Position numbers and translations under genes: made by a program | Notes under the pieces: model-generated | Databases searched by the model: none | What the model was told of the DNA's origin: nothing | The model's input: the letters and a program-made list of their open reading frames with translations, nothing else | DNA from: a virus | DNA: 38,213 nt | Virus record (IMG/VR): IMGVR_UViG_3300046535_001103 | Coordinates: 1-38,213 of that record | Direction: 5' to 3' (one strand) | Part shown: in pieces, positions 21,882-37,673 of the stretch | Layout of the letters: each line of letters starts with the position of its first letter | Position numbering within the stretch: position 1 is the first letter of the stretch

Positions 21882-22130
21882 GTGCAAACCAAAAACATGT
21901 GGCTCGACAATGACGGGGGCCTATGGCTTCGCCAGGGCGACAAGGGCCTCGGGCGGCCCGTCAAGATCGGCCATATCGTTCGGTCCCCGCGGTGGCCTCG
22001 GGAACGGGGCGACCGGCCCGACTGGTTCGCAGCCGAGATCAAGCAACTGAAAACCGATTGGGCCGACCCGGAACGCTTCGCGCCGGAACCAGACCCGGCG
22101 GTGGATTCCCGCGGGCGGCCCTACAAGTGA
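21882..22130 (+). CDS. small hypothetical protein
   Basis: The 82-residue product starts with GTG at 21882 because GGGAGG (21872-21877) is four bases upstream; an internal ATG lies at 21897. The sequence has MWLDNDGGLWLRQGDKGLGRP, WFAAEIKQLKTDWADPERF and a polar C-terminus. No motif recognised. It belongs to the small genes preceding the recombination cassette. Confidence 0.6.
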   Translation: MQTKNMWLDNDGGLWLRQGDKGLGRPVKIGHIVRSPRWPRERGDRPDWFAAEIKQLKTDWADPERFAPEPDPAVDSRGRPYK

Positions 22131-22140
22131 AGGAGCATCC

Positions 22141-22326
22141 ATGAATATTCAGAACATCGGCCCGTGCGACTATTGCGGCTCCCCGATCACCGTCGACCTG
22201 GACCGGCCGAAGCCCATCACCGTTGCGTGCGAGTTTTGCGGCCATGTCTACGGCACGATTTCCAACCCCAAACCCCAACCGATAGAAAGGTTGATTCATG
22301 CAACTCCCGGCTATGATCGTAACTGA
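22141..22326 (+). CDS. small zinc-ribbon protein
   Basis: The 61-residue product has two CxxC pairs (CDYCGS at residues 9-14 and CEFCGH at 30-35), the layout of a zinc ribbon. A GAAGGAG site precedes the ATG. It overlaps the exonuclease start by 29 bases, so the two are translated together. It may be a small DNA- or RNA-binding partner of the recombination proteins; that is inference. Confidence 0.7.
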   Translation: MNIQNIGPCDYCGSPITVDLDRPKPITVACEFCGHVYGTISNPKPQPIERLIHATPGYDRN

Positions 22327-23191
22327 CAGGGCCGAATGGCTCCGCGCCAGGAAGGAGGGCATCGGCGCCAGCGAAGCAGCGGCGGCCCTCGGCATGTCCC
22401 CCTTCGAGTCACCGCGCGAGCTCTATCTCCGCAAGCTCGGCATGCTCCCCGATGTTGAGGAAACCGAGGCGATGGCCGAGGGCTCATTCATGGAGCCCTA
22501 CATCGCGCGGCGCTACATGGAGCGCACCGGGCGACTCATCACCGGCACCCAGCTTTTTTACCGATCCCCGATCACATGCCTCATGGCCACGATTGACGGC
22601 ATGACGGACGCGGGTTATCCGGTCGAATTCAAATGGACCACGCGCCCGGGCAACCTTGACCTCGGCGAGGAGGCGACTGACGACTTGCCCCCCCATTGGC
22701 TCATTCAGGGCCATCAGCAAATGATCCTCACCGGCACGGCCCGGGTTGACTTCGCAGTCAAGGCCCCCGGGCGGCCCGTGCGGATCTTCGACGTGCGGCG
22801 CGATGAGGAGCTCTGCGAATCCATCATCATCGGGGTTCGTCGTTTTTGGGCCGACGTTCAAAACCGGGTTGTCCCCGAGAGCAACGGCCGGGCCGACGCG
22901 CGGACCCTCCATCTCATCTACCCCGACAGCCTCGGCGAGGTGGCGCTCGACGATCATGCGGCCAGGCTCATTGATGATTACGAGCGCCTTGGCGGCGAGT
23001 GCAAGGCCCTCGATGAGGAGCGGGCCGAGGCCAAGGCGGCCATCCTCGAGATCCTCGGCAACCATGCACTCGGCCGGCTCCCCGATGGCCGATGCATCAC
23101 GCGCAAGGTCGTCACCGTCGGAGAGAAAACCTACACGCGCAAGGGTTACAGTTTCACCGGAATGTGGATCGGGAAGGGAGGCCGGAATTGA
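22298..23191 (+). CDS. YqaJ-like viral exonuclease
   Basis: The 297-residue nuclease of the lambda-exonuclease type resects double-stranded DNA ends for annealing by RecT. The family motifs are GIGASEAAAALG (21-32), the EGSFMEP segment with acidic residues, and ATIDG...VEFKW, which supplies D100, E110 and K112 of the PD-(D/E)xK core. HWLIQGHQQMILTG follows. The next gene is RecT, started by TTG overlapping this stop, the normal exonuclease-annealase pair. An AAAGG site supports the ATG at 22298. Confidence 0.92.
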   Translation: MQLPAMIVTDRAEWLRARKEGIGASEAAAALGMSPFESPRELYLRKLGMLPDVEETEAMAEGSFMEPYIARRYMERTGRLITGTQLFYRSPITCLMATIDGMTDAGYPVEFKWTTRPGNLDLGEEATDDLPPHWLIQGHQQMILTGTARVDFAVKAPGRPVRIFDVRRDEELCESIIIGVRRFWADVQNRVVPESNGRADARTLHLIYPDSLGEVALDDHAARLIDDYERLGGECKALDEERAEAKAAILEILGNHALGRLPDGRCITRKVVTVGEKTYTRKGYSFTGMWIGKGGRN

Positions 23192-24069
23192 GCAAGGCCC
23201 GAGACATCCAACCCGCGGCGCAGGCGGGCCCCCTCGACCTGGCGGCGACCCTCTACTCCTTGCGGCCCGAGATCAAAAAGGTTCTCACCGGCCCCAAGGT
23301 AATCGAGCGGTTCCTCCGGGTGGCGTTGACCGAGCTCCGGCTCAAGCCCGACCTCCAGCGCTGCACCGCGCAAAGCATCATGGCCAGCATCATGTCAGCG
23401 GCTCAACTCAACCTCGAAATCGGCGGGGCGCTCCGCCACGGCTACCTTGTCCCCTACAAGGGCGAGTGTTCTTTCCAGCCCAGCTATATCGGCCTCCTCG
23501 CCTTGGCGCGGCGCTCCAAGGTGTTCGCCGACATTGATGCGGTTCTTGTCAATGACGGCGACAAATTCCGATACGTGCGCAACCCGAAACCCGAGCTCTT
23601 TCATGAGCCCGCGCTCTGGAATCCGGGGCCCGAGCTCGGGGCCTACGTGTTCGCGGTCTTGAAGAATGGCGAATACAAATTCCTGGCGATGGCCAAGGCC
23701 GAAATCGAGCGCGTTCGGCAATCCTCCAATGCCCCGAATTCCCTCATGTGGACGAAGTATTGGGGCGAGGGCGCCAAGAAAACCGTCTTGAAGCGCTTCC
23801 TCAAGACGTGCGAACTCTCCCCCGAGCTCGCGACCGCAATCGAGCTCGATGACAAGGAATACCGGGACACCACGGCCACGGTTACCGTCGGCCACGTCCC
23901 CGAGGGCAAGGGCGCCAAGGGCCTGGCGGCCAGGCTCCGCGGGCAGCTCCCCCCGCCGGCCCCCGAGGAGGAGGGCCAGGCCCCGGCCTCGGCCTCGGCC
24001 GAGGAGGACCAGGGCGACGACTGGCCGGAATCTGACGACGGGGTGGCGAGCAACCCGAACGACGGTTGA
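23188..24069 (+). CDS. recT: RecT-family single-strand annealing protein
   Basis: The 293-residue annealase is TTG-started in a TTGA overlap, with GGGAGG just upstream. Family signatures are IERFLRVALTELR, QSIMASIMSAAQLNLE, HGYLVPYKGECSFQPSYIG and SLMWTKYWGEGAKKTVLKR. The C-terminus is acidic and Pro/Ala-rich. It coats single strands made by the YqaJ-type nuclease and anneals them, supporting phage recombination and concatemer formation. Confidence 0.93.
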   Translation: MSKARDIQPAAQAGPLDLAATLYSLRPEIKKVLTGPKVIERFLRVALTELRLKPDLQRCTAQSIMASIMSAAQLNLEIGGALRHGYLVPYKGECSFQPSYIGLLALARRSKVFADIDAVLVNDGDKFRYVRNPKPELFHEPALWNPGPELGAYVFAVLKNGEYKFLAMAKAEIERVRQSSNAPNSLMWTKYWGEGAKKTVLKRFLKTCELSPELATAIELDDKEYRDTTATVTVGHVPEGKGAKGLAARLRGQLPPPAPEEEGQAPASASAEEDQGDDWPESDDGVASNPNDG

Positions 24070-24078
24070 AAGGAACGA

Positions 24079-24291
24079 ATGATGAAGTGTGAACGATGCC
24101 CAGCGGTTTCCGTCGCCTATCAGCTTTTCGATTATTGCGCGGAGTGCGCGAAGAATCTTTGCTCCGGTTGCATGGCGGCGGGGTGTTGCGGCCACGCGCC
24201 AGCGGTCAGCGGAATGGCGATTGATTACGGGCGCAAGCCCCAAGATCCGGCATCCTCGGCCGGGCCGGCGCCCGACGATACTCTCGGTTGA
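24079..24291 (+). CDS. small cysteine-rich zinc-finger-like protein
   Basis: The 70-residue product carries CERCP, then CAECAKNLCSGCMAAGCCGH: at least eight cysteines plus a histidine in paired CxxC spacing, suggesting one or two zinc sites (a B-box- or RING-like layout). The tail is disordered. It lies between recT and the first pentanucleotide tract, and a strong GC hairpin follows the stop. Confidence 0.68.
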   Translation: MMKCERCPAVSVAYQLFDYCAECAKNLCSGCMAAGCCGHAPAVSGMAIDYGRKPQDPASSAGPAPDDTLG

Positions 24292-24296
24292 GAGAA

Positions 24297-24317
24297 GCCC
24301 CGCGCGGAACGCGGGGC
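24297..24317 (+). terminator. 8-bp GC hairpin, exact copy 1
   Basis: GCCCCGCG (24297-24304) pairs perfectly with CGCGGGGC (24310-24317) around the loop CGGAA. The identical 21-base element occurs at 25954-25974. It lies six bases after a stop codon and is directly followed by the pentanucleotide tract, so termination or mRNA end protection is plausible. Confidence 0.6.
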
Positions 24318-24519
24318 GAGGCATGGCAGGCAGGGCCAGGTATGGCATGGCGCGGCCGGACGTGGCAGGGCGCGGCAGGCAGGGCCCGGAGTGGCGTGAC
24401 AAGGCAAGGCAGGCATGGCGCCGCACGGCGGCGATTGGCAAGGCTCGGCCTGGCCTGGCCTGGCCTGGCGGGCATGGCGTCGCATGCCGAGGCATGGCGG
24501 CTCGCGGCAAGGCAGGCAA
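24318..24519 (+). repeat. degenerate pentanucleotide (NNGGC)n tract, copy 1
   Basis: About 200 bases consist mostly of five-base units of the NNGGC type, such as ATGGC, AAGGC, AGGCA phases and four tandem CTGGC units near 24450. Strand bias is strong: the top strand is G-rich and the bottom C-rich. The ORFs across it encode only Pro/Ala/Cys/His or Arg/Gly runs and are artefacts. It ends shortly before the ribosome binding site of the gene at 24547, so it should be part of that gene's leader. Confidence 0.8.
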
Positions 24520-24546
24520 GGATTCCTTTTACAAGGAGGTTTTCCG

Positions 24547-25224
24547 ATGGCAACCAGGCCACCCAAGGCAGCTCCGGCGACGATGGGCGACGCGACGGCG
24601 GCGAAGCCCGAGCCCATCGTTATCAAGGCGCTCAACATCGGCGTCATGACGTTCACGATCCGGGGCACTGCGCCCTATGTTGGGAACGCATTCAGCGAGA
24701 AGGCGCGGGCGACGATCATCGAGAAACAGGAGAAAGGCACGCAACGCAGTACGCGCACGAAGGAGCGCGAGGCTAAGGATTTTGAGGCGTGTTTTCGCGC
24801 AGCAACGCATACCTCGCAAAAGGGATGGCATGGCATCCCGGCCAACGCATTTCGCAAGGCAATGATCGCGGCTTGCCGAACATGCGATTTCTCAATGAAG
24901 CATGCAAAGCTTGCGATTTTCATTCAGGCCGATGGCTTGGATAAAACCGACCTCATGCCACTCGTAAGGATCACCAAGGGCACTCCTCGGCACGTAAAGC
25001 ATCACGTTCGGCTCAGTGAGACGACGACTGATATTCGCTCCCGTCCGATGTGGGATGAGGGGTGGGAGGCCGATGTTACCATTCGCTTTGATGCGGGGAT
25101 GTTCAAGCCATCGGATATCGCTAACCTCCTTCACCGCGCCGGATTCCAGGTTGGAGTCGGCGAGGGCCGGGCTGACTCCGAATCGGGCGGCGTCGGGTGG
25201 GGATTCTTCGAGATAGTGGCCTGA
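24547..25224 (+). CDS. recombination-cassette protein with RAMP-like glycine-rich C-terminus
   Basis: The 225-residue protein starts at the ATG at 24547, seven bases after AAGGAGG. The first 25 residues are a linker; the core begins IKALNIGVMTFTIRGTAPYV. Further on are GIPANAFRKAMIAACRTCDF, TKGTPRHVKHHVRL and WEADVTIRFDAGMFKPSDIA, and the end is GVGEGR...GGVGWGFFEI. The last segment resembles the glycine-rich loop that closes RAMP (Cas5/6/7-type) ferredoxin folds; this is a pattern-level inference. It lies downstream of exonuclease and RecT, alone between two pentanucleotide tracts. A single-strand-binding role is plausible. Confidence 0.78.
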   Translation: MATRPPKAAPATMGDATAAKPEPIVIKALNIGVMTFTIRGTAPYVGNAFSEKARATIIEKQEKGTQRSTRTKEREAKDFEACFRAATHTSQKGWHGIPANAFRKAMIAACRTCDFSMKHAKLAIFIQADGLDKTDLMPLVRITKGTPRHVKHHVRLSETTTDIRSRPMWDEGWEADVTIRFDAGMFKPSDIANLLHRAGFQVGVGEGRADSESGGVGWGFFEIVA

Positions 25225-25234
25225 TTCGCCCGCA

Positions 25235-25410
25235 AGACATGGCATGGCAGGCACGGCGGGGCCAGGCATGACAAGGCGGGTCCCGGCGAGGCAGGCGAGG
25301 CGAGGATGGGCTAGGCCGGGCGTGGAACGGCTAGGCCGGGCATGGCAGGCAAGGCGCGACACGGCATGGTGCGGCAAGACCTGGACCGGCGAGGCATAGC
25401 AGGCAAGGCG
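25235..25410 (+). repeat. degenerate pentanucleotide (NNGGC)n tract, copy 2
   Basis: A second tract of five-base-period GGC-rich units (ATGGC, AGGCA, GGCTA, GGCGA types), similar in style but not identical to the one before the preceding gene. It fills the gap from that gene to the ribosome binding site of the next gene. The two tracts bracket exactly one gene. Confidence 0.78.
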
Positions 25411-25434
25411 TCTATATCCCAAGGAGATCAAACA

Positions 25435-25932
25435 GTGTTATCTGATGAGATAAGTTCCGAACTTAATGCCTTATGCGAATCTCGCGGCGGCATTCTCATA
25501 GGGGCGAAGGAGGTTCTCGCTTTCGCCGAGGAGCAACCCCAATCGGCCATCGGCAAGCGACTATTCGCCAAGACCGATAAGGCGGCGGCTCGCGAATGGC
25601 GGCTTGGCGAAGCGCGGACCCTCATTCGCCTCTGGTATGAAAAGGAGCCGCAGACCGATCGGCGAATCAGGGCGGCAATCAGTGTGCCGAGCGACCGCAC
25701 GCTCGGGGCCTATCGGCGAACAACTCACGCGCTGGCCGATACCACAACCCGCGCGGAATTGGTGGAGGAGGCCCTCAAGAGAATCGGGGCGACCCGATCG
25801 GCCTACGGGTATCTCCCCGAGCTCGGGGGATTCTTCGACAAGCTCGACGCGCTGATTGCCGAGACTCGCGCGACACTGGCGGCGGCGCCTCGGCCAAGGG
25901 CGCCCAAAATGAGGAGGCCCAAGGCTTCCTGA
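25435..25932 (+). CDS. phage hypothetical protein after tract 2
   Basis: The 165-residue product is drawn from the GTG at 25435 because AAGGAG (25421-25426) is eight bases upstream; a TTG follows directly. The frame upstream reads through the repeat tract and is rejected. The helical, charged sequence (KEVLAFAEEQPQSAIGKRLF, WRLGEARTLIRLWYEKEPQ, TTRAELVEEALKRI) ends in a basic Pro-rich tail. It resembles phage early hypothetical proteins but I cannot name the family. The tail suggests nucleic acid contact. Confidence 0.65.
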   Translation: MLSDEISSELNALCESRGGILIGAKEVLAFAEEQPQSAIGKRLFAKTDKAAAREWRLGEARTLIRLWYEKEPQTDRRIRAAISVPSDRTLGAYRRTTHALADTTTRAELVEEALKRIGATRSAYGYLPELGGFFDKLDALIAETRATLAAAPRPRAPKMRRPKAS

Positions 25933-25953
25933 TTGATACTCTCGAACGGAGAG

Positions 25954-25974
25954 GCCCCGCGCGGAACGCGGGGC
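25954..25974 (+). terminator. 8-bp GC hairpin, exact copy 2
   Basis: Identical to the hairpin at 24297: GCCCCGCG and CGCGGGGC around CGGAA. It lies 21 bases after the stop of the preceding gene. Two exact copies flanking the repeat-associated gene pair suggest duplication of an end signal, or transfer of this piece as a unit. Confidence 0.62.
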
Positions 25975-26063
25975 GGGGCACGGGGCCATGAATAGGCTCT
26001 AAGCCAGGATGGAACGCGGCCACGAAGGCCGGGCGAAGGATTTGCCACGATCACCCTCGACTC

Positions 26064-26096
26064 GCCGGCCCCGAGCATGGAACGCATGGGGCCGGC
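26064..26096 (+). terminator. 9-bp hairpin upstream of the next gene
   Basis: GCCGGCCCC (26064-26072) pairs with GGGGCCGGC (26088-26096) around a 15-base loop and is followed by ATTT. It could be a terminator or a leader structure for the gene at 26127. Confidence 0.45.
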
Positions 26097-26126
26097 ATTT
26101 ACCATCGAACCAAGAAAGGAGGCCCG

Positions 26127-26573
26127 ATGGCCTCGGTTCTTCAAGATTGGGTGCAAGCCCTCGGGTTGCGGCATCAGGGCGTTTTGGTGGCGGCCGTGCG
26201 CGGATGCGATAGCGTACCGAAGGAAGATCCGTCCAAGGCATTCGTGCGATGCTATCGCGCGGTGGTCTTGAACTCCCATTGCGGCGACCCGGCCAGGGCG
26301 AAAAGCTTTATCCAGGCGGTTGACGATATCGAGCTCACGCGCCGATTCCTGGCGCTCCGCGGAAGCTTTGACCATTACCCGATCCATTACGTTATGCATC
26401 TCGTTCACGCGATGGAGATAGTTGGTTACAAGCACCCCGACATTCAAACCGGAATCACATGGACCGGCTTTTACGCCGAAATGTGTGAGAAGCTCCATCT
26501 TCAGACCGAAAGCCCCGCGCAGCTTGACGAGCGCCTCGGGGCCGATGAGGAAACCTTCGCATCGCGAATCTGA
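26127..26573 (+). CDS. conserved phage protein of unknown function
   Basis: The 148-residue product (WVQALGLRHQGVLVAAVRGCD, then KEDPSKAFVRCYRAVVLNSH, SFDHYPIHYVMHLVHAMEIVGYKHP) follows a pattern I recognise from phage early genes of many hosts, but I know no established role. His, Tyr and Cys residues are conserved-looking, so an enzyme or metal site is possible. A strong AAAGGAGG site precedes the ATG. It ends the recombination cassette. Confidence 0.75.
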   Translation: MASVLQDWVQALGLRHQGVLVAAVRGCDSVPKEDPSKAFVRCYRAVVLNSHCGDPARAKSFIQAVDDIELTRRFLALRGSFDHYPIHYVMHLVHAMEIVGYKHPDIQTGITWTGFYAEMCEKLHLQTESPAQLDERLGADEETFASRI

Positions 26574-26632
26574 TCACCTCCCGCGCATCACCTCTCGACT
26601 CACCCTCGACTGACACCTTTGAGTGACGGCTT

Positions 26633-26657
26633 GCCGGGTTTCACCGTGAGACCCGGC
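26633..26657 (+). terminator. GC hairpin in the intergenic region
   Basis: GCCGGGT (26633-26639) pairs with ACCCGGC (26651-26657). Inside, TCAC/GTGA adds four pairs after one mismatch. It lies 59 bases after a stop codon and before the next ribosome binding site. The downstream T content is low. Confidence 0.45.
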
Positions 26658-26689
26658 GACTCTTCCACGCATTCAAAGGAGTGAACTCC

Positions 26690-27040
26690 ATGTCAACCGA
26701 TGCAACCCCGGCCGAGGCCGAGGCAAGCCCAGCGCCCAAGCCGGCCAAGGCGAAGAAACCCAAAGCCCCCGCGATCGACTTCCGACTGGCGGCCGACCGG
26801 CTCGCGATTGCCGGGCAGACCGAGCGGCTCCGAATCCTGTTCATCCTCGCCGAGGGCGAACATTGCGGCGCCGACCTCATGAGTATTGCCGGCCTGGCGC
26901 AACCGGCCGTCAGTAGTCACCTCGCCATCCTCCGGCAAACCGGAATGGTCGAATCCGAGCGCCGAGGGCAAAAGGTTTTCAACCTGATTGCCCCCTACGG
27001 CCAGCGGATCGTTGATTTCGTGCGGGCCTCCCAACTGTGA
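26690..27040 (+). CDS. ArsR-like winged-helix regulator with basic N-terminal tail
   Basis: The 116-residue product starts at the ATG at 26690, eight bases after AAAGGAG. Residues 1-27 are a Pro/Ala/Lys-rich tail. The winged helix follows: AIAGQTERLRILFILAEGEH, DLMSIAGLAQPAVSSHLAILRQTGMV and SERRGQKVFNL as the wing. The recognition helix has QPAVSSHLAIL. A strong terminator-type hairpin follows, so it is a separate unit upstream of the replication genes and is a candidate for controlling them. Confidence 0.83.
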   Translation: MSTDATPAEAEASPAPKPAKAKKPKAPAIDFRLAADRLAIAGQTERLRILFILAEGEHCGADLMSIAGLAQPAVSSHLAILRQTGMVESERRGQKVFNLIAPYGQRIVDFVRASQL

Positions 27041-27057
27041 GCTCGGGCCAACCTGGA

Positions 27058-27083
27058 GGCCCTCGGGCGGATTCCCGAGGGCC
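27058..27083 (+). terminator. 10-bp hairpin terminator
   Basis: GGCCCTCGGG (27058-27067) pairs perfectly with CCCGAGGGCC (27074-27083) around a six-base loop; outer GGAG/CTCC pairs extend it with a bulge. It lies 17 bases after the regulator stop and just before a candidate promoter. Confidence 0.6.
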
Positions 27084-27110
27084 CTCCTTGGCTTTCCAGA
27101 TTCGTGCCGT

Positions 27111-27139
27111 TTGACGTGGTAAACTACCGTTATCAGGAT
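27111..27139 (+). promoter_or_regulatory. candidate promoter with a small inverted repeat
   Basis: TTGACG (27111-27116) is followed after 17 bases by CAGGAT (27134-27139), a moderate -10 match. The spacer contains GGTA-AAC-TACC, a symmetric element suited to repressor binding. It is AT-richer than its surroundings and lies between a terminator and the replication genes. Confidence 0.4.
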
Positions 27140-27182
27140 GGGGCGGTTGTGCTTATGTATTCAAAGATTAAGAGGTTTCACT

Positions 27183-27458
27183 ATGGCGGATGTGTCAAGC
27201 TATACCGCGGAATCGGTTGCGGCCTCCGAACCGGTTTGGATCTCGATTCCCCAGGCGGCCCGACTCCTCGGGGTGCGCAACGAAATCGTGTATTCGCTCG
27301 TCAAGCACGGGCGATTGACGGTCAAGAAAGTGCCAGGTTGCCACCAGCGGTTGAACCGGCGCGAAATCCTCGAACTCATCACCGCCAGCATCCAGCCCGC
27401 GGTTGCCCCCCTCGCACCGGGGCACTTTGCCGGCACCTCCCGCAAACCCTCGGCCTGA
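27183..27458 (+). CDS. small HTH protein (excisionase/MerR-like)
   Basis: The 91-residue product (WISIPQAARLLGVRNEIVYSL, then VKHGRLTVKKVPGCHQRLNRREILELI) has the layout of the DNA-binding domain of excisionases and MerR-like proteins. An AGAGG site precedes the ATG. It sits just before the replication initiator, so a replication or early regulatory role is more likely than excision. A second protein of this type lies next to the integrase. Confidence 0.75.
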   Translation: MADVSSYTAESVAASEPVWISIPQAARLLGVRNEIVYSLVKHGRLTVKKVPGCHQRLNRREILELITASIQPAVAPLAPGHFAGTSRKPSA

Positions 27459-27481
27459 TCCTCGCCGAGGAGGTTGCGGAC

Positions 27482-28408
27482 ATGCTCCCCTATCTGAAGC
27501 TATTCACCGAGGCGAGAACCGACATGAAATTGCGCACCCTTACGGCCGAGCAATTTCGTGTCTGGTTTCACCTTCTTTGCTACGCCTCCGAACAAGACGA
27601 GCGCGGGGTTATCGAGAAGCCCCTTCGCATCCTGGCGATAGAGGTTTCCGGCGGCGACACAGCGGCATTACAGGCAAGCCTTGATGCATTGTCCGACCTC
27701 GAAATCGTGTCGGTAACACCCTGTAACACCCCTGTAACAACATGTAACACCCCGGGGTTGTTACATGCGCAAAACGAGCGTTTTCGAGTGGCGTTTATCA
27801 ACTTCGAGAAACGACAAGGGCGCAAGCCGTCTTGGACACCCGAAAGAACGCGAGAACGTGTCGCAAAGTCAAGGGCCAACAAGCGTTCAAATGTAGGCCA
27901 TCAATCGCCAGCGAAAGCCGTAACACCCTGTAACACCCCTGTAACAACATGTAACACCCTAGATGGAGATGGAGAATTAGAATTAGGGAGACTTAATACC
28001 TCCCCCCTTGGTATCCCCCCCGGGGTAATTTTGACCGGACAACGGAACGGGGAAGACCTCGCCGACATCAACGCGGCCATCGCGCTCCTCGCCTCCGACC
28101 TGGCGACCGAACATCTCGGCCTTGAACTCGGCCGGCGGCATAACACCGGCGCCTATCGATCCCTCGAAGGATGGCGATTCCGTCGAGCGGCGAAGCGTAT
28201 CCAAGATCCCAGCATCTCGGCATCCCAGCGCCGGAGCTTTCCCTACTTCGTCGGCATCGCCAAAGGCTATTCCGAGGCCGAGCGAATCGAGAAGCCCCCC
28301 GCCAAGCGGGAAAGCCCGGCCCAGCGCCGGCAGCGTGAACTCCAAGAAGGTTTTACGGCAATGGCGGCCCGAGAGAAGGCCGAGCGGGAAAGGGGCGAAG
28401 CGTCATGA
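27482..28408 (+). CDS. replication initiator, replisome-organizer-like, carrying the origin
   Basis: The 308-residue product begins MLPYLKLFTEARTDMKLRTL. The winged-helix part TAEQFRVWFHLLCYASEQDERG through VAFINFEKRQGRKPS is typical of phage replisome organizers. The C-terminal part is basic and helical. Inside the gene, residues about 77-95 and 146-158 are encoded by TGTAACA repeat clusters, giving the odd peptides VTPCNTPVTTCNTP; these are origin iterons, as in lambda gene O. A GAGGAGG site precedes the ATG at 27482. The next gene overlaps the stop (ATGA). Confidence 0.88.
   Translation: MLPYLKLFTEARTDMKLRTLTAEQFRVWFHLLCYASEQDERGVIEKPLRILAIEVSGGDTAALQASLDALSDLEIVSVTPCNTPVTTCNTPGLLHAQNERFRVAFINFEKRQGRKPSWTPERTRERVAKSRANKRSNVGHQSPAKAVTPCNTPVTTCNTLDGDGELELGRLNTSPLGIPPGVILTGQRNGEDLADINAAIALLASDLATEHLGLELGRRHNTGAYRSLEGWRFRRAAKRIQDPSISASQRRSFPYFVGIAKGYSEAERIEKPPAKRESPAQRRQRELQEGFTAMAAREKAERERGEAS
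27712..27765 (+). repeat. origin iteron cluster 1
   Basis: (G/T)GTAACA copies start at 27712, 27722, 27733 and 27743, with steps of 10, 11 and 10 bases, about one helical turn. A fifth copy, TGTTACA at 27759-27765, is inverted. All lie inside the initiator gene. Confidence 0.88.
27919..27956 (+). repeat. origin iteron cluster 2
   Basis: (C/T)GTAACA copies start at 27919, 27929, 27940 and 27950, with the same 10, 11, 10 steps as cluster 1. The cluster repeats the order and intervening bases of cluster 1 almost exactly, implying duplication and selection on spacing. Confidence 0.88.
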
Positions 28409-28980
28409 GGACGGCCGAATGGTTCCCAGCGTGGGCGGGGCGGCACATTGATCGATTCCCCCGGGCCGACTGGCCGGAGGCCGGGGCGGAATTTTGGAAG
28501 ACCCTCCGGCACTTGCTCATTACCAAGGGCGTTACCGAGGAGATTGCGGACGAAGCGAGCCTCAACCTTTTCGAGAATCCGCCGGAACACCTCGGCCAGC
28601 ACCCGAAGGCCCTCCTCGGCGAAGCGCGGCGACTCTTCAAAGCCTCCAACTCGGCGCAGGCCCAAACCGACGACGCGGCCGAGGCCAGGCGGCAATCGGC
28701 CGGGTGCGAGGATTGCCGGGGCGATGGTCTGACCTACCGGTGGCGGCGGAAATCCGCCGGCCTCCTCGACCGCGACGGCAAGCCCCTGATTCCGTTCATA
28801 CTGTTCTATTGCACATGCGCTTATGGAAGGTTCGCCGAGCGGGCCCATCGGAACCGGGCGGCCGACGTTCGCAAACGGTTCCACGACCTCCAGGATTACC
28901 CGTGGCTTTGGGGGCAGGAGTACCGGCAACCCCCGACCGAGGCCGAGGCCCGGTCAATTCGAGTCGACCCGTTGTTCTGA
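28405..28980 (+). CDS. replication-region protein in the lambda P position
   Basis: The 191-residue product starts in an ATGA overlap with the initiator. It has a helical N-terminal half (WPEAGAEFWKTLRHLLITKG, HLGQHPKALLGEARRLFKA), then CEDCRGDGLTYRWRRK and YCTCAYGRF, which together supply four cysteines for a zinc site. No helicase Walker motif is seen. Its position directly after the initiator matches helicase loaders such as lambda P, but the family is not recognised, so the loader role is inference. Confidence 0.7.
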   Translation: MRTAEWFPAWAGRHIDRFPRADWPEAGAEFWKTLRHLLITKGVTEEIADEASLNLFENPPEHLGQHPKALLGEARRLFKASNSAQAQTDDAAEARRQSAGCEDCRGDGLTYRWRRKSAGLLDRDGKPLIPFILFYCTCAYGRFAERAHRNRAADVRKRFHDLQDYPWLWGQEYRQPPTEAEARSIRVDPLF

Positions 28981-36843: not shown

Positions 36844-37047
36844 GTGGCCGAGAACCACCCGGAACCGGGGCCCCAACCTCCAGGCAAGGGCGACCCCCCC
36901 CGCCAGTGCCAGGGCCACGGGGCGCTTAAGGGATTCTGCAATCGCACCGATGACGTGCGGTTCGATGTGACCACATGCCGTTGGTTGTGTCGGCCATGCT
37001 GGGAAAGGGTTGTCCCGAGTCTCTATGGGAAGCGGCCCAGCGAGTGA
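36844..37047 (+). CDS. small cysteine-containing protein
   Basis: The 67-residue product begins at GTG 36844, one base after the previous stop. It has CQGHGALKGFC and CRWLCRPCW, five cysteines plus a His, likely a zinc site. The N-terminus is Pro/Gly-rich. Start choice is uncertain because no clear ribosome binding site is seen. It ends in a GTGA overlap with the sigma factor start, suggesting coupling. Confidence 0.55.
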   Translation: MAENHPEPGPQPPGKGDPPRQCQGHGALKGFCNRTDDVRFDVTTCRWLCRPCWERVVPSLYGKRPSE

Positions 37048-37673
37048 ATCCCCTCGACCCGTTGCAATACCGGCCGATCGTAGAATTCGCAGTGCGGCGG
37101 CATCGCGGCAATGGCCTGGAGCTCGACGACCTCATTGGCGAGGGCTTTGTTGGCTTGCTTGAGGCCATCAGACGAGTCGAGCGCGGCGGCCTCCGGCATG
37201 ACGGGGCGATCCTCGCCTATTTCATGCGTTGTGTCGCGGGCCGGATCAAACACGCGCTCGCCAGGAACCGATTTATCCCGATTCATGCCGAGGCGCTCCG
37301 AGGCTATCGGCGAGGAGCTCGCGACCGAAGGGCCGACAGCGCGGGGCGATCGTTTGCACTCACCCGGCGCCGCGGGCGATCCGGCGACGATCTCACCCGT
37401 TCCATCCGCGCCCCCGAGGAAAGCGACAACCGGCGGCTTTGGGCCATCCTGGCGCACCTCCCCCCGACCGATTCGGAAGTTCTGCAATTCGCCTTAGGGC
37501 TCGATGGTGGCGATGGCCGAAGTCTCCAGGATGTTGCCGACATCACCGGAATCAAGCGTTGCATGTGCCATCACATTAAGAACAGGGCCCTACGCAAACT
37601 GAGGGCGATTCTGACGAAGGAGGCCCGCATTGTCGCTAGCACAGGTCAACATCCAATCAACGGCCGACAATAA
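37044..37673 (+). CDS. phage-encoded sigma-70-family factor
   Basis: The 209-residue protein has a region 2 at about 25-80 (LELDDLIGEGFVGLLEAIRR, AYFMRCVAGRIKHALARNRF). Region 4 is at about 135-187 (LPPTDSEVLQFALGL, SLQDVADITGIKRCMCHHIK, NRALRKLR), with a linker rich in Arg between. The start is GTG at 37044 in a GTGA overlap; the frame is open upstream to 36975. It lies just before the ends and terminase, so it is a candidate activator of the late operon. Confidence 0.82.
   Translation: MNPLDPLQYRPIVEFAVRRHRGNGLELDDLIGEGFVGLLEAIRRVERGGLRHDGAILAYFMRCVAGRIKHALARNRFIPIHAEALRGYRRGARDRRADSAGRSFALTRRRGRSGDDLTRSIRAPEESDNRRLWAILAHLPPTDSEVLQFALGLDGGDGRSLQDVADITGIKRCMCHHIKNRALRKLRAILTKEARIVASTGQHPINGRQ

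What the first reader, a model, noticed from the sequence alone, without database searches (positions are those of the whole stretch)
24318..25434. Five-base-period GGC tracts bracketing a single gene in the recombination cassette
Two tracts of about 180-200 bases each, made mostly of degenerate NNGGC pentamers with strong strand asymmetry, fill both gaps around the gene at 24547-25224 and occur nowhere else in the window. Each also ends just before a ribosome binding site, so both would be transcribed as leaders. A strict period with free bases at two positions suggests selection for a protein footprint on one strand (RecT or the flanked protein) or for RNA structure, not simple slippage.
Basis: partly seen in the sequence, partly recalled or inferred. 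Interest (0 to 1): 0.8.

Follow-up and report, generated by a model that had tools for sequence, protein, structure and literature searches.

The report
Phage VIPR locus: RNA-guide arrays
The two five-base-period tracts are almost certainly arrays of small guide RNAs (vrRNAs) flanking the gene for their CRISPR-related partner protein, so this phage carries a VIPR system, a programmable weapon against other phages first described in a 2026 preprint.

Summary
Lag-5 autocorrelation is 7.3 and 6.4 sd above dinucleotide shuffles, on the + strand only, and the tracts occur nowhere else in the window. The interpretation needs changing. The flanked protein (24547-25224) belongs to the Vipr family: SUSP1 Vipr, the founding member, scores E=2e-47 against a profile of its relatives, a profile search of PDB sequences returns 'SUSP1 Vipr protein' (36pp, E=1e-42), and the AlphaFold model (pLDDT 93) matches the CRISPR Cas7/Csm3 RAMP fold (Z 12). 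The tracts are vrRNA arrays (GGY-NN repeats). Of 120 contigs fetched only by the repeat pattern, 81 encode this protein family. Of 103 loci fetched only by the protein, 80 carry a same-strand tract within 1.5 kb (144 such tracts near the gene, 1 farther, 3 antisense). Modules of about 7-13 repeats are separated by a 4-nt unit, GGCA. The next gene (25435-25932) is a recurrent accessory gene. In a related locus one guide, read by the published 1-nt-skip rule, matches a conserved codon stretch of many vipr genes, supporting the rule in this clade. I found no convincing target for the window's own guides. It is a new member of a known kind.

The parts
24315..24521 (+). vrRNA array T1 (upstream of vipr): GGY-NN pentamers, modules g1-g4
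   Evidence: lag-5 z 7.3; parse
24329..24373 (+). guide module g1, 9 units, NN = AG CA AT AT GC CG GT AG GC
24378..24407 (+). guide module g2, 6 units, NN = AG CC GT GT AA AA
24412..24466 (+). guide module g3, 11 units, NN = AT GC AC GG TT AA TC CT CT CT CT
24471..24510 (+). guide module g4, 8 units, NN = AT GT AT GA AT GG GC AA
24547..25224 (+). vipr: 225-aa RAMP protein (phrog_4652)
   Evidence: SUSP1 Vipr scores E=2e-47 with the family HMM; hhalign E=3.5e-33; PDB 36pp SUSP1 Vipr E=1.2e-42; AF2 pLDDT 93, Csm3 fold Z 12.1
25240..25410 (+). vrRNA array T2 (downstream of vipr): modules g5-g7
   Evidence: lag-5 z 6.4; parse
25250..25274 (+). guide module g5, 5 units, partly irregular downstream
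25294..25343 (+). guide module g6, 10 units, NN = GA GA TG TA CG GT AC TA CG AT
25348..25397 (+). guide module g7, 10 units, NN = AA GC AC AT GC AA CT CC GA AT
25435..25932 (+). candidate vap (VIPR accessory gene), 165 aa, GTG start, phrog_15946
   Evidence: family HMM hits 132 of 192 loci with vipr, always on the same strand; phrog_15946 in 50 of 50 members
24292..24326 (+). 35-nt hairpin repeat, copy 1, just before T1
   Evidence: 91% identical to copy 2; its core 24298-24316 occurs only twice in the window
25949..25983 (+). 35-nt hairpin repeat, copy 2, just after vap; the two copies bracket the whole VIPR unit

Best explanation
This is a phage-encoded VIPR locus ordered vrRNA array - vipr - vrRNA array - vap. 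Shown here: the protein belongs to the Vipr/RAMP family, and GGY-NN tracts go with it across unrelated phages. Inferred from the VIPR preprint: the + strand of each tract is transcribed and cut into small RNAs; Vipr subunits coat the RNA, one per 5-nt GGY-NN unit; and the exposed NN dinucleotides pair with double-stranded DNA with one base skipped between them, silencing genes of competing phages or prophages. The recurrent 4-nt unit GGCA marks module boundaries and may be where one guide ends and the next begins; that last step is my inference.
For: Protein: SUSP1 Vipr against the family HMM, 148.7 bits, E=2e-47; hhalign E=3.5e-33; profile search of PDB sequences returns 36pp 'SUSP1 Vipr protein', E=1.2e-42; AF2 model pLDDT 93.2; Csm3/Cas7 fold, Z 12.1 over 149 residues, rmsd 3.4. 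RNA: GGY-NN repeats as in the preprint (PMC13142463; window units). Association tested in both directions: 81 of 120 contigs fetched by repeat alone encode the protein; 80 of 103 loci fetched by protein alone have a same-strand tract within 1.5 kb, with 144 tracts near vipr on its strand, 1 farther and 3 on the other strand. Module structure: of 667 4-nt units, 584 are GGCA; 402 of 486 module lengths are multiples of 5, mostly 35-65 nt. Guide turnover: L214 and L229 have vipr 92.8% identical but share 1 of about 10 modules. Code: an L193 guide read with 1-nt skip matches 34 vipr genes at 3 or fewer mismatches of 18, while 20 shuffles of its NN order give 0 or 1; all 97 genes at 5 or fewer mismatches have the skipped base at the codon wobble position.
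Against: No convincing target was found for the window's guides: g6, g7 and g1 have no exact match in viral contigs; g3's first 9 NN hit one AT-rich contig, but its last two NN do not match; g6's central 8 NN hit one contig in a small ORF at wobble phase, but both ends fail, about chance level. 14 of 59 units depart from GGY, so some guides may be decaying. No 3' tail shared by T1 and T2 is visible, whereas SUSP1 vrRNAs have one. The accessory protein is not similar in sequence to SUSP1 Vap1. Expression was not testable.
Confidence: 0.95

Rival explanations
1. The tracts are binding sites (DNA or RNA) for RecT or another recombination protein, marking a recombination hot spot.
For: RecE- and RecT-like genes lie directly upstream (22298-24069); RecT-type proteins bind DNA with a short per-subunit footprint (own knowledge).
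Against: Tracts follow the vipr gene in phages where the adjacent annotated genes are not RecT: between tail genes in Gordonia phage ODay and next to excisionase or repressor genes in Saal and Quico. In protein-fetched loci 144 of 145 same-strand tracts lie within 1.5 kb of vipr.
Confidence: 0.02
2. Low-complexity microsatellite produced by slippage, without function.
For: One stretch, GGCCT repeated at 24447-24469, is a pure tandem repeat.
Against: GGY is conserved and NN nearly free, unlike slippage copies; the strand follows the gene; NN of all 16 kinds occur at 3-11%; modules end in a conserved 4-nt unit.
Confidence: 0.01
3. A structured regulatory leader RNA controlling vipr and vap translation.
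For: Both tracts end just before ribosome-binding sites, so they are probably on the mRNA.
Against: Folding no better than shuffles for T1 (z +0.58) and only slightly for T2 (z -1.53); in most relatives the tract lies downstream of vipr or vap; module content changes while the genes stay alike.
Confidence: 0.03
4. A VIPR locus in decay: genes intact but guides degraded and inactive.
For: 14 of 59 units depart from GGY, modules g2 and g5 are short, and no targets were found.
Against: vipr and vap are open and conserved; modules of 8-11 units remain; other loci also show non-GGY units.
Confidence: 0.15

Closest known systems
VIPR systems (Viral Interference Programmable Repeat), exemplar Escherichia phage SUSP1 (PMC13142463; PDB 36pp)
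   Same: RAMP-fold Vipr clearly homologous over the whole domain; GGY-NN repeat tracts flanking the gene; small accessory gene; phage-encoded minimal locus
   Different: Repeats mostly GGC, not GGT; modules run head to tail with a 4-nt GGCA slip between them instead of separate ~100-nt RNAs with a structured 3' tail; accessory protein (phrog_15946) not detectably related to SUSP1 Vap1. The preprint mentions staggered arrays in another type, probably this one, but its supplement could not be read
Class 1 CRISPR effector backbone, Csm3/Cas7 (type III-A)
   Same: Same RAMP fold with glycine-rich loop, Z 12.1 to 9g9f_D; subunits coat a guide RNA at a fixed spacing (for Vipr inferred)
   Different: About 8-15% sequence identity, no CRISPR array, no other cas genes found next to it, 5-nt instead of 6-nt period, gapped code

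Membership tests
VIPR | Vipr protein: small RAMP with RRM core and G-loop, homologous to SUSP1 Vipr | tested here: met
   HMM E=2e-47, hhalign E=3.5e-33, PDB 36pp E=1.2e-42, Csm3 fold Z 12.1, near-invariant G199, G203, R208, G219 and invariant W173
VIPR | Intergenic tandem GGY-NN (YNNGG) repeats next to vipr | tested here: met
   45 of 59 units GGY, NN near random; lag-5 z 7.3 and 6.4
VIPR | 9-16 repeats per vrRNA | tested here: inconclusive
   Modules between 4-nt units hold 5-11 repeats in the window and mostly 7-13 in relatives; true RNA ends unknown
VIPR | 3' tail with conserved structure after the repeats (SUSP1 clade) | tested here: inconclusive
   T1 and T2 share only an AAGGAG ribosome-binding site after the repeats; in relatives arrays run into the next gene
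VIPR | vap accessory gene | tested here: met
   25435-25932 family found in 132 of 192 vipr loci, same strand; but not similar to SUSP1 Vap1, and its fold search gave no match
VIPR | 1-nt-skip DNA code | tested here: inconclusive
   Supported in the clade by the L193 guide against vipr genes and 10 guides at 2 or fewer mismatches with skip 1 versus 3, 4 and 7 with skip 0, 2, 3; no target for the window's guides
VIPR | vrRNA is transcribed and co-purifies with Vipr | not testable with these tools
   needs small-RNA sequencing and pull-down
Class 1 CRISPR-Cas | CRISPR array of direct repeats and spacers with several cas genes | tested here: not met
   no CRISPR-type repeat in the window; the neighbouring genes checked are RecE, RecT and unknowns

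The most novel reading that the evidence does not exclude
Arrays of this clade are read as concatenated guides whose frame is reset by a conserved 4-nt GGCA unit, without a structured tail: a punctuated, CRISPR-array-like form of VIPR in which modules are gained and lost while vipr stays nearly unchanged.
Probability: 0.3. Interest if true: 0.6.

Novelty: new member of a known kind. Interest (0 to 1): 0.45.

Why it matters
VIPR is a recently described RNA-guided system thought to precede CRISPR. This window adds a member with guides on both sides of vipr. The comparison gives an independent two-way association of repeats and protein, a rule for splitting arrays into modules (GGCA units), a recurrent accessory family, and an example of a guide aimed at a conserved codon stretch of rival vipr genes. 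Together these let guides and targets be read from metagenomic phages.

Tried and rejected
Rfam search of 22000-28500: no match, no hammerhead. RNA structure: not above shuffles for T1, weak for T2. A small all-against-all target scan in the first 130 loci did not separate skip rules. Exact target scans for g7, g6 and g1: none; single hits for g3 and the g6 centre rejected as chance level; the 65-aa ORF holding the g6 hit has no homologue in the phage records or PHROGs. A Bradyrhizobium guide (L142) against 196 genomes of its genus: one 1-mismatch hit, about the number expected by chance. Vap fold: Foldseek best E 0.73, no relative found. Vap against SUSP1 Vap1: no detectable similarity. My first HMM pass was contaminated by translated tracts and was redone with tracts masked. 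Wide alignment A1 was too diverse for locus searches, so A2 was used.

Full report
Observation. The two tracts exist as described. T1 (about 24315-24521) and T2 (about 25240-25410) show lag-5 identity 7.3 and 6.4 sd above 1000 dinucleotide-preserving shuffles, with peaks at lags 10, 15 and 20; the signal is on the + strand and nowhere else in the window. The period slips by one base at recurring 4-nt units, so the tracts fall into modules g1-g7. Over the 59 units of these modules the first three positions are nearly fixed (GGC or GGT, entropy 0.36-0.66 bits) and the last two nearly free (1.82 and 1.95 bits).

The flanked gene. 24547-25224 encodes 225 residues, PHROG 4652 of unknown function, without a Pfam or NCBIfam name. 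Relatives at 28-48% identity occur in Mycobacterium and Gordonia phages and a cyanophage. All seven relatives first fetched, two from viral contigs and five from annotated phages, had a GGC pentamer tract nearby.

Association in both directions. A scan by protein alone gave 103 new loci; 80 have a tract on the same strand within 1.5 kb, and counted as tracts 144 are near vipr on its strand, 1 is farther away and 3 are on the other strand.

Identity. A literature search found a 2026 preprint on VIPR systems: a phage RAMP protein, Vipr, with vrRNAs made of GGY/NN repeats whose NN dinucleotides recognise DNA with one base skipped (PMC13142463). Its exemplar, SUSP1 Vipr, which was not used to build the model, scores 148.7 bits, E=2e-47, against the family profile and E=3.5e-33 by profile comparison. 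Searching PDB sequences with the family profile returns 36pp, 'SUSP1 Vipr protein', E=1.2e-42. The predicted structure (76-sequence alignment, pLDDT 93.2) matches Csm3 and other Cas7-type RAMPs (Z up to 12.1). So the gene is vipr and the tracts are vrRNA arrays.

Array grammar. Over 310 tracts in 167 loci, successive GGY motifs are 5 nt apart 7753 times and 4 nt apart 667 times; 584 of the 667 4-nt units are GGCA; 402 of 486 distances between them are multiples of 5, mostly 35-65 nt. The same GGCA-GGC junction is seen in cyanophage, Mycobacterium and Gordonia phage arrays. In the window it lies at 24325, 24374, 24408, 24511, 25246, 25290 and 25344. I infer that it marks guide boundaries. The preprint mentions staggered arrays with overlapping vrRNAs in some types; whether these are the same could not be checked. 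Guides change fast: two loci with vipr 92.8% identical share 1 of about 10 modules.

Accessory gene. 25435-25932 belongs to a family found in 132 of 192 loci with vipr, always on the same strand; all 50 aligned members match phrog_15946. Its model is confident (pLDDT 93.2), but Foldseek gave no significant PDB match, and it is not similar in sequence to SUSP1 Vap1. It is most likely a vap; its role is unknown.

Testing the code. Reading all modules of nine or more units against the held loci with 0-3 skipped bases, 10 guides have a match with two or fewer mismatches at skip 1, against 3, 4 and 7 at skip 0, 2 and 3. The excess is small apart from one guide of L193, which is complementary to the codons for V-T-F-D-A-D-Q-F-T, a conserved stretch of Vipr: 34 vipr genes match with three or fewer mismatches of 18, shuffled guides match 0 or 1, and in all 97 genes at five or fewer mismatches the skipped base falls on the third codon position. 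This supports the published rule in this clade and shows a guide apparently directed at rival VIPR systems. L193's own vipr is among the matches at two mismatches, and the window's vipr differs at 7 of the 18 positions.

Targets of the window. None is established. Exact scans for g7, g6 and g1 found nothing. Nine NN of g3 hit one AT-rich contig, but the last two NN fail. The central eight NN of g6 hit one 38-kb phage contig in a small open frame at wobble phase, but both ends fail. The host is unknown, and its prophages could not be searched.

Alternatives. RecT footprint: tracts occur without recT as annotated neighbour, e.g. between tail genes in phage ODay. Structured leader: folding is not above shuffles for T1 and weak for T2. 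Slippage: contradicted by fixed GGY with free NN and by strand and gene association. Decay of some guides is possible, since 14 of 59 units are off consensus.

Verdict. A VIPR locus with arrays on both sides of vipr, a new member of a kind described in 2026. What is added here is the two-way association, the GGCA module grammar, the accessory family and one vipr-directed guide.

Noticed in passing
window 24292-24326 and 25949-25983: A 35-nt hairpin repeat (CCCCGCGCGGAACGCGGGG core, 91% identical copies) lies just before T1 and just after vap, bracketing the whole VIPR unit; its core occurs nowhere else in the window. Possible terminators or module borders.
   Followed up: partly
window 27713-27753 and 27920-27960: Two 41-nt blocks of GTAACA-type repeats (GTAACACCCT / GTAACAACAT) inside the ORF 27104-28408, spaced 207 bases apart; look like iterons, perhaps a replication origin.
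   Followed up: no
L193 (IMGVR_UViG_3300046812_000216): Very long vrRNA array (182 units) whose guides include one matching a conserved codon stretch of vipr genes of other phages.
   Followed up: yes
L237 6307-6329 (-), IMGVR_UViG_3300033513_000029: Eight consecutive NN of window guide g6 match a small ORF (DCYRVTYR) at wobble phase; both ends of the guide mismatch, so it may be chance.
   Followed up: partly
window 24079-24291: 70-aa ORF with CxxC motifs (zinc-ribbon-like) between recT and T1; no relative among the held loci.
   Followed up: no
window 36975-37673: 232-aa protein resembling an RNA polymerase sigma factor (phrog_351, E=1.3e-13).
   Followed up: no
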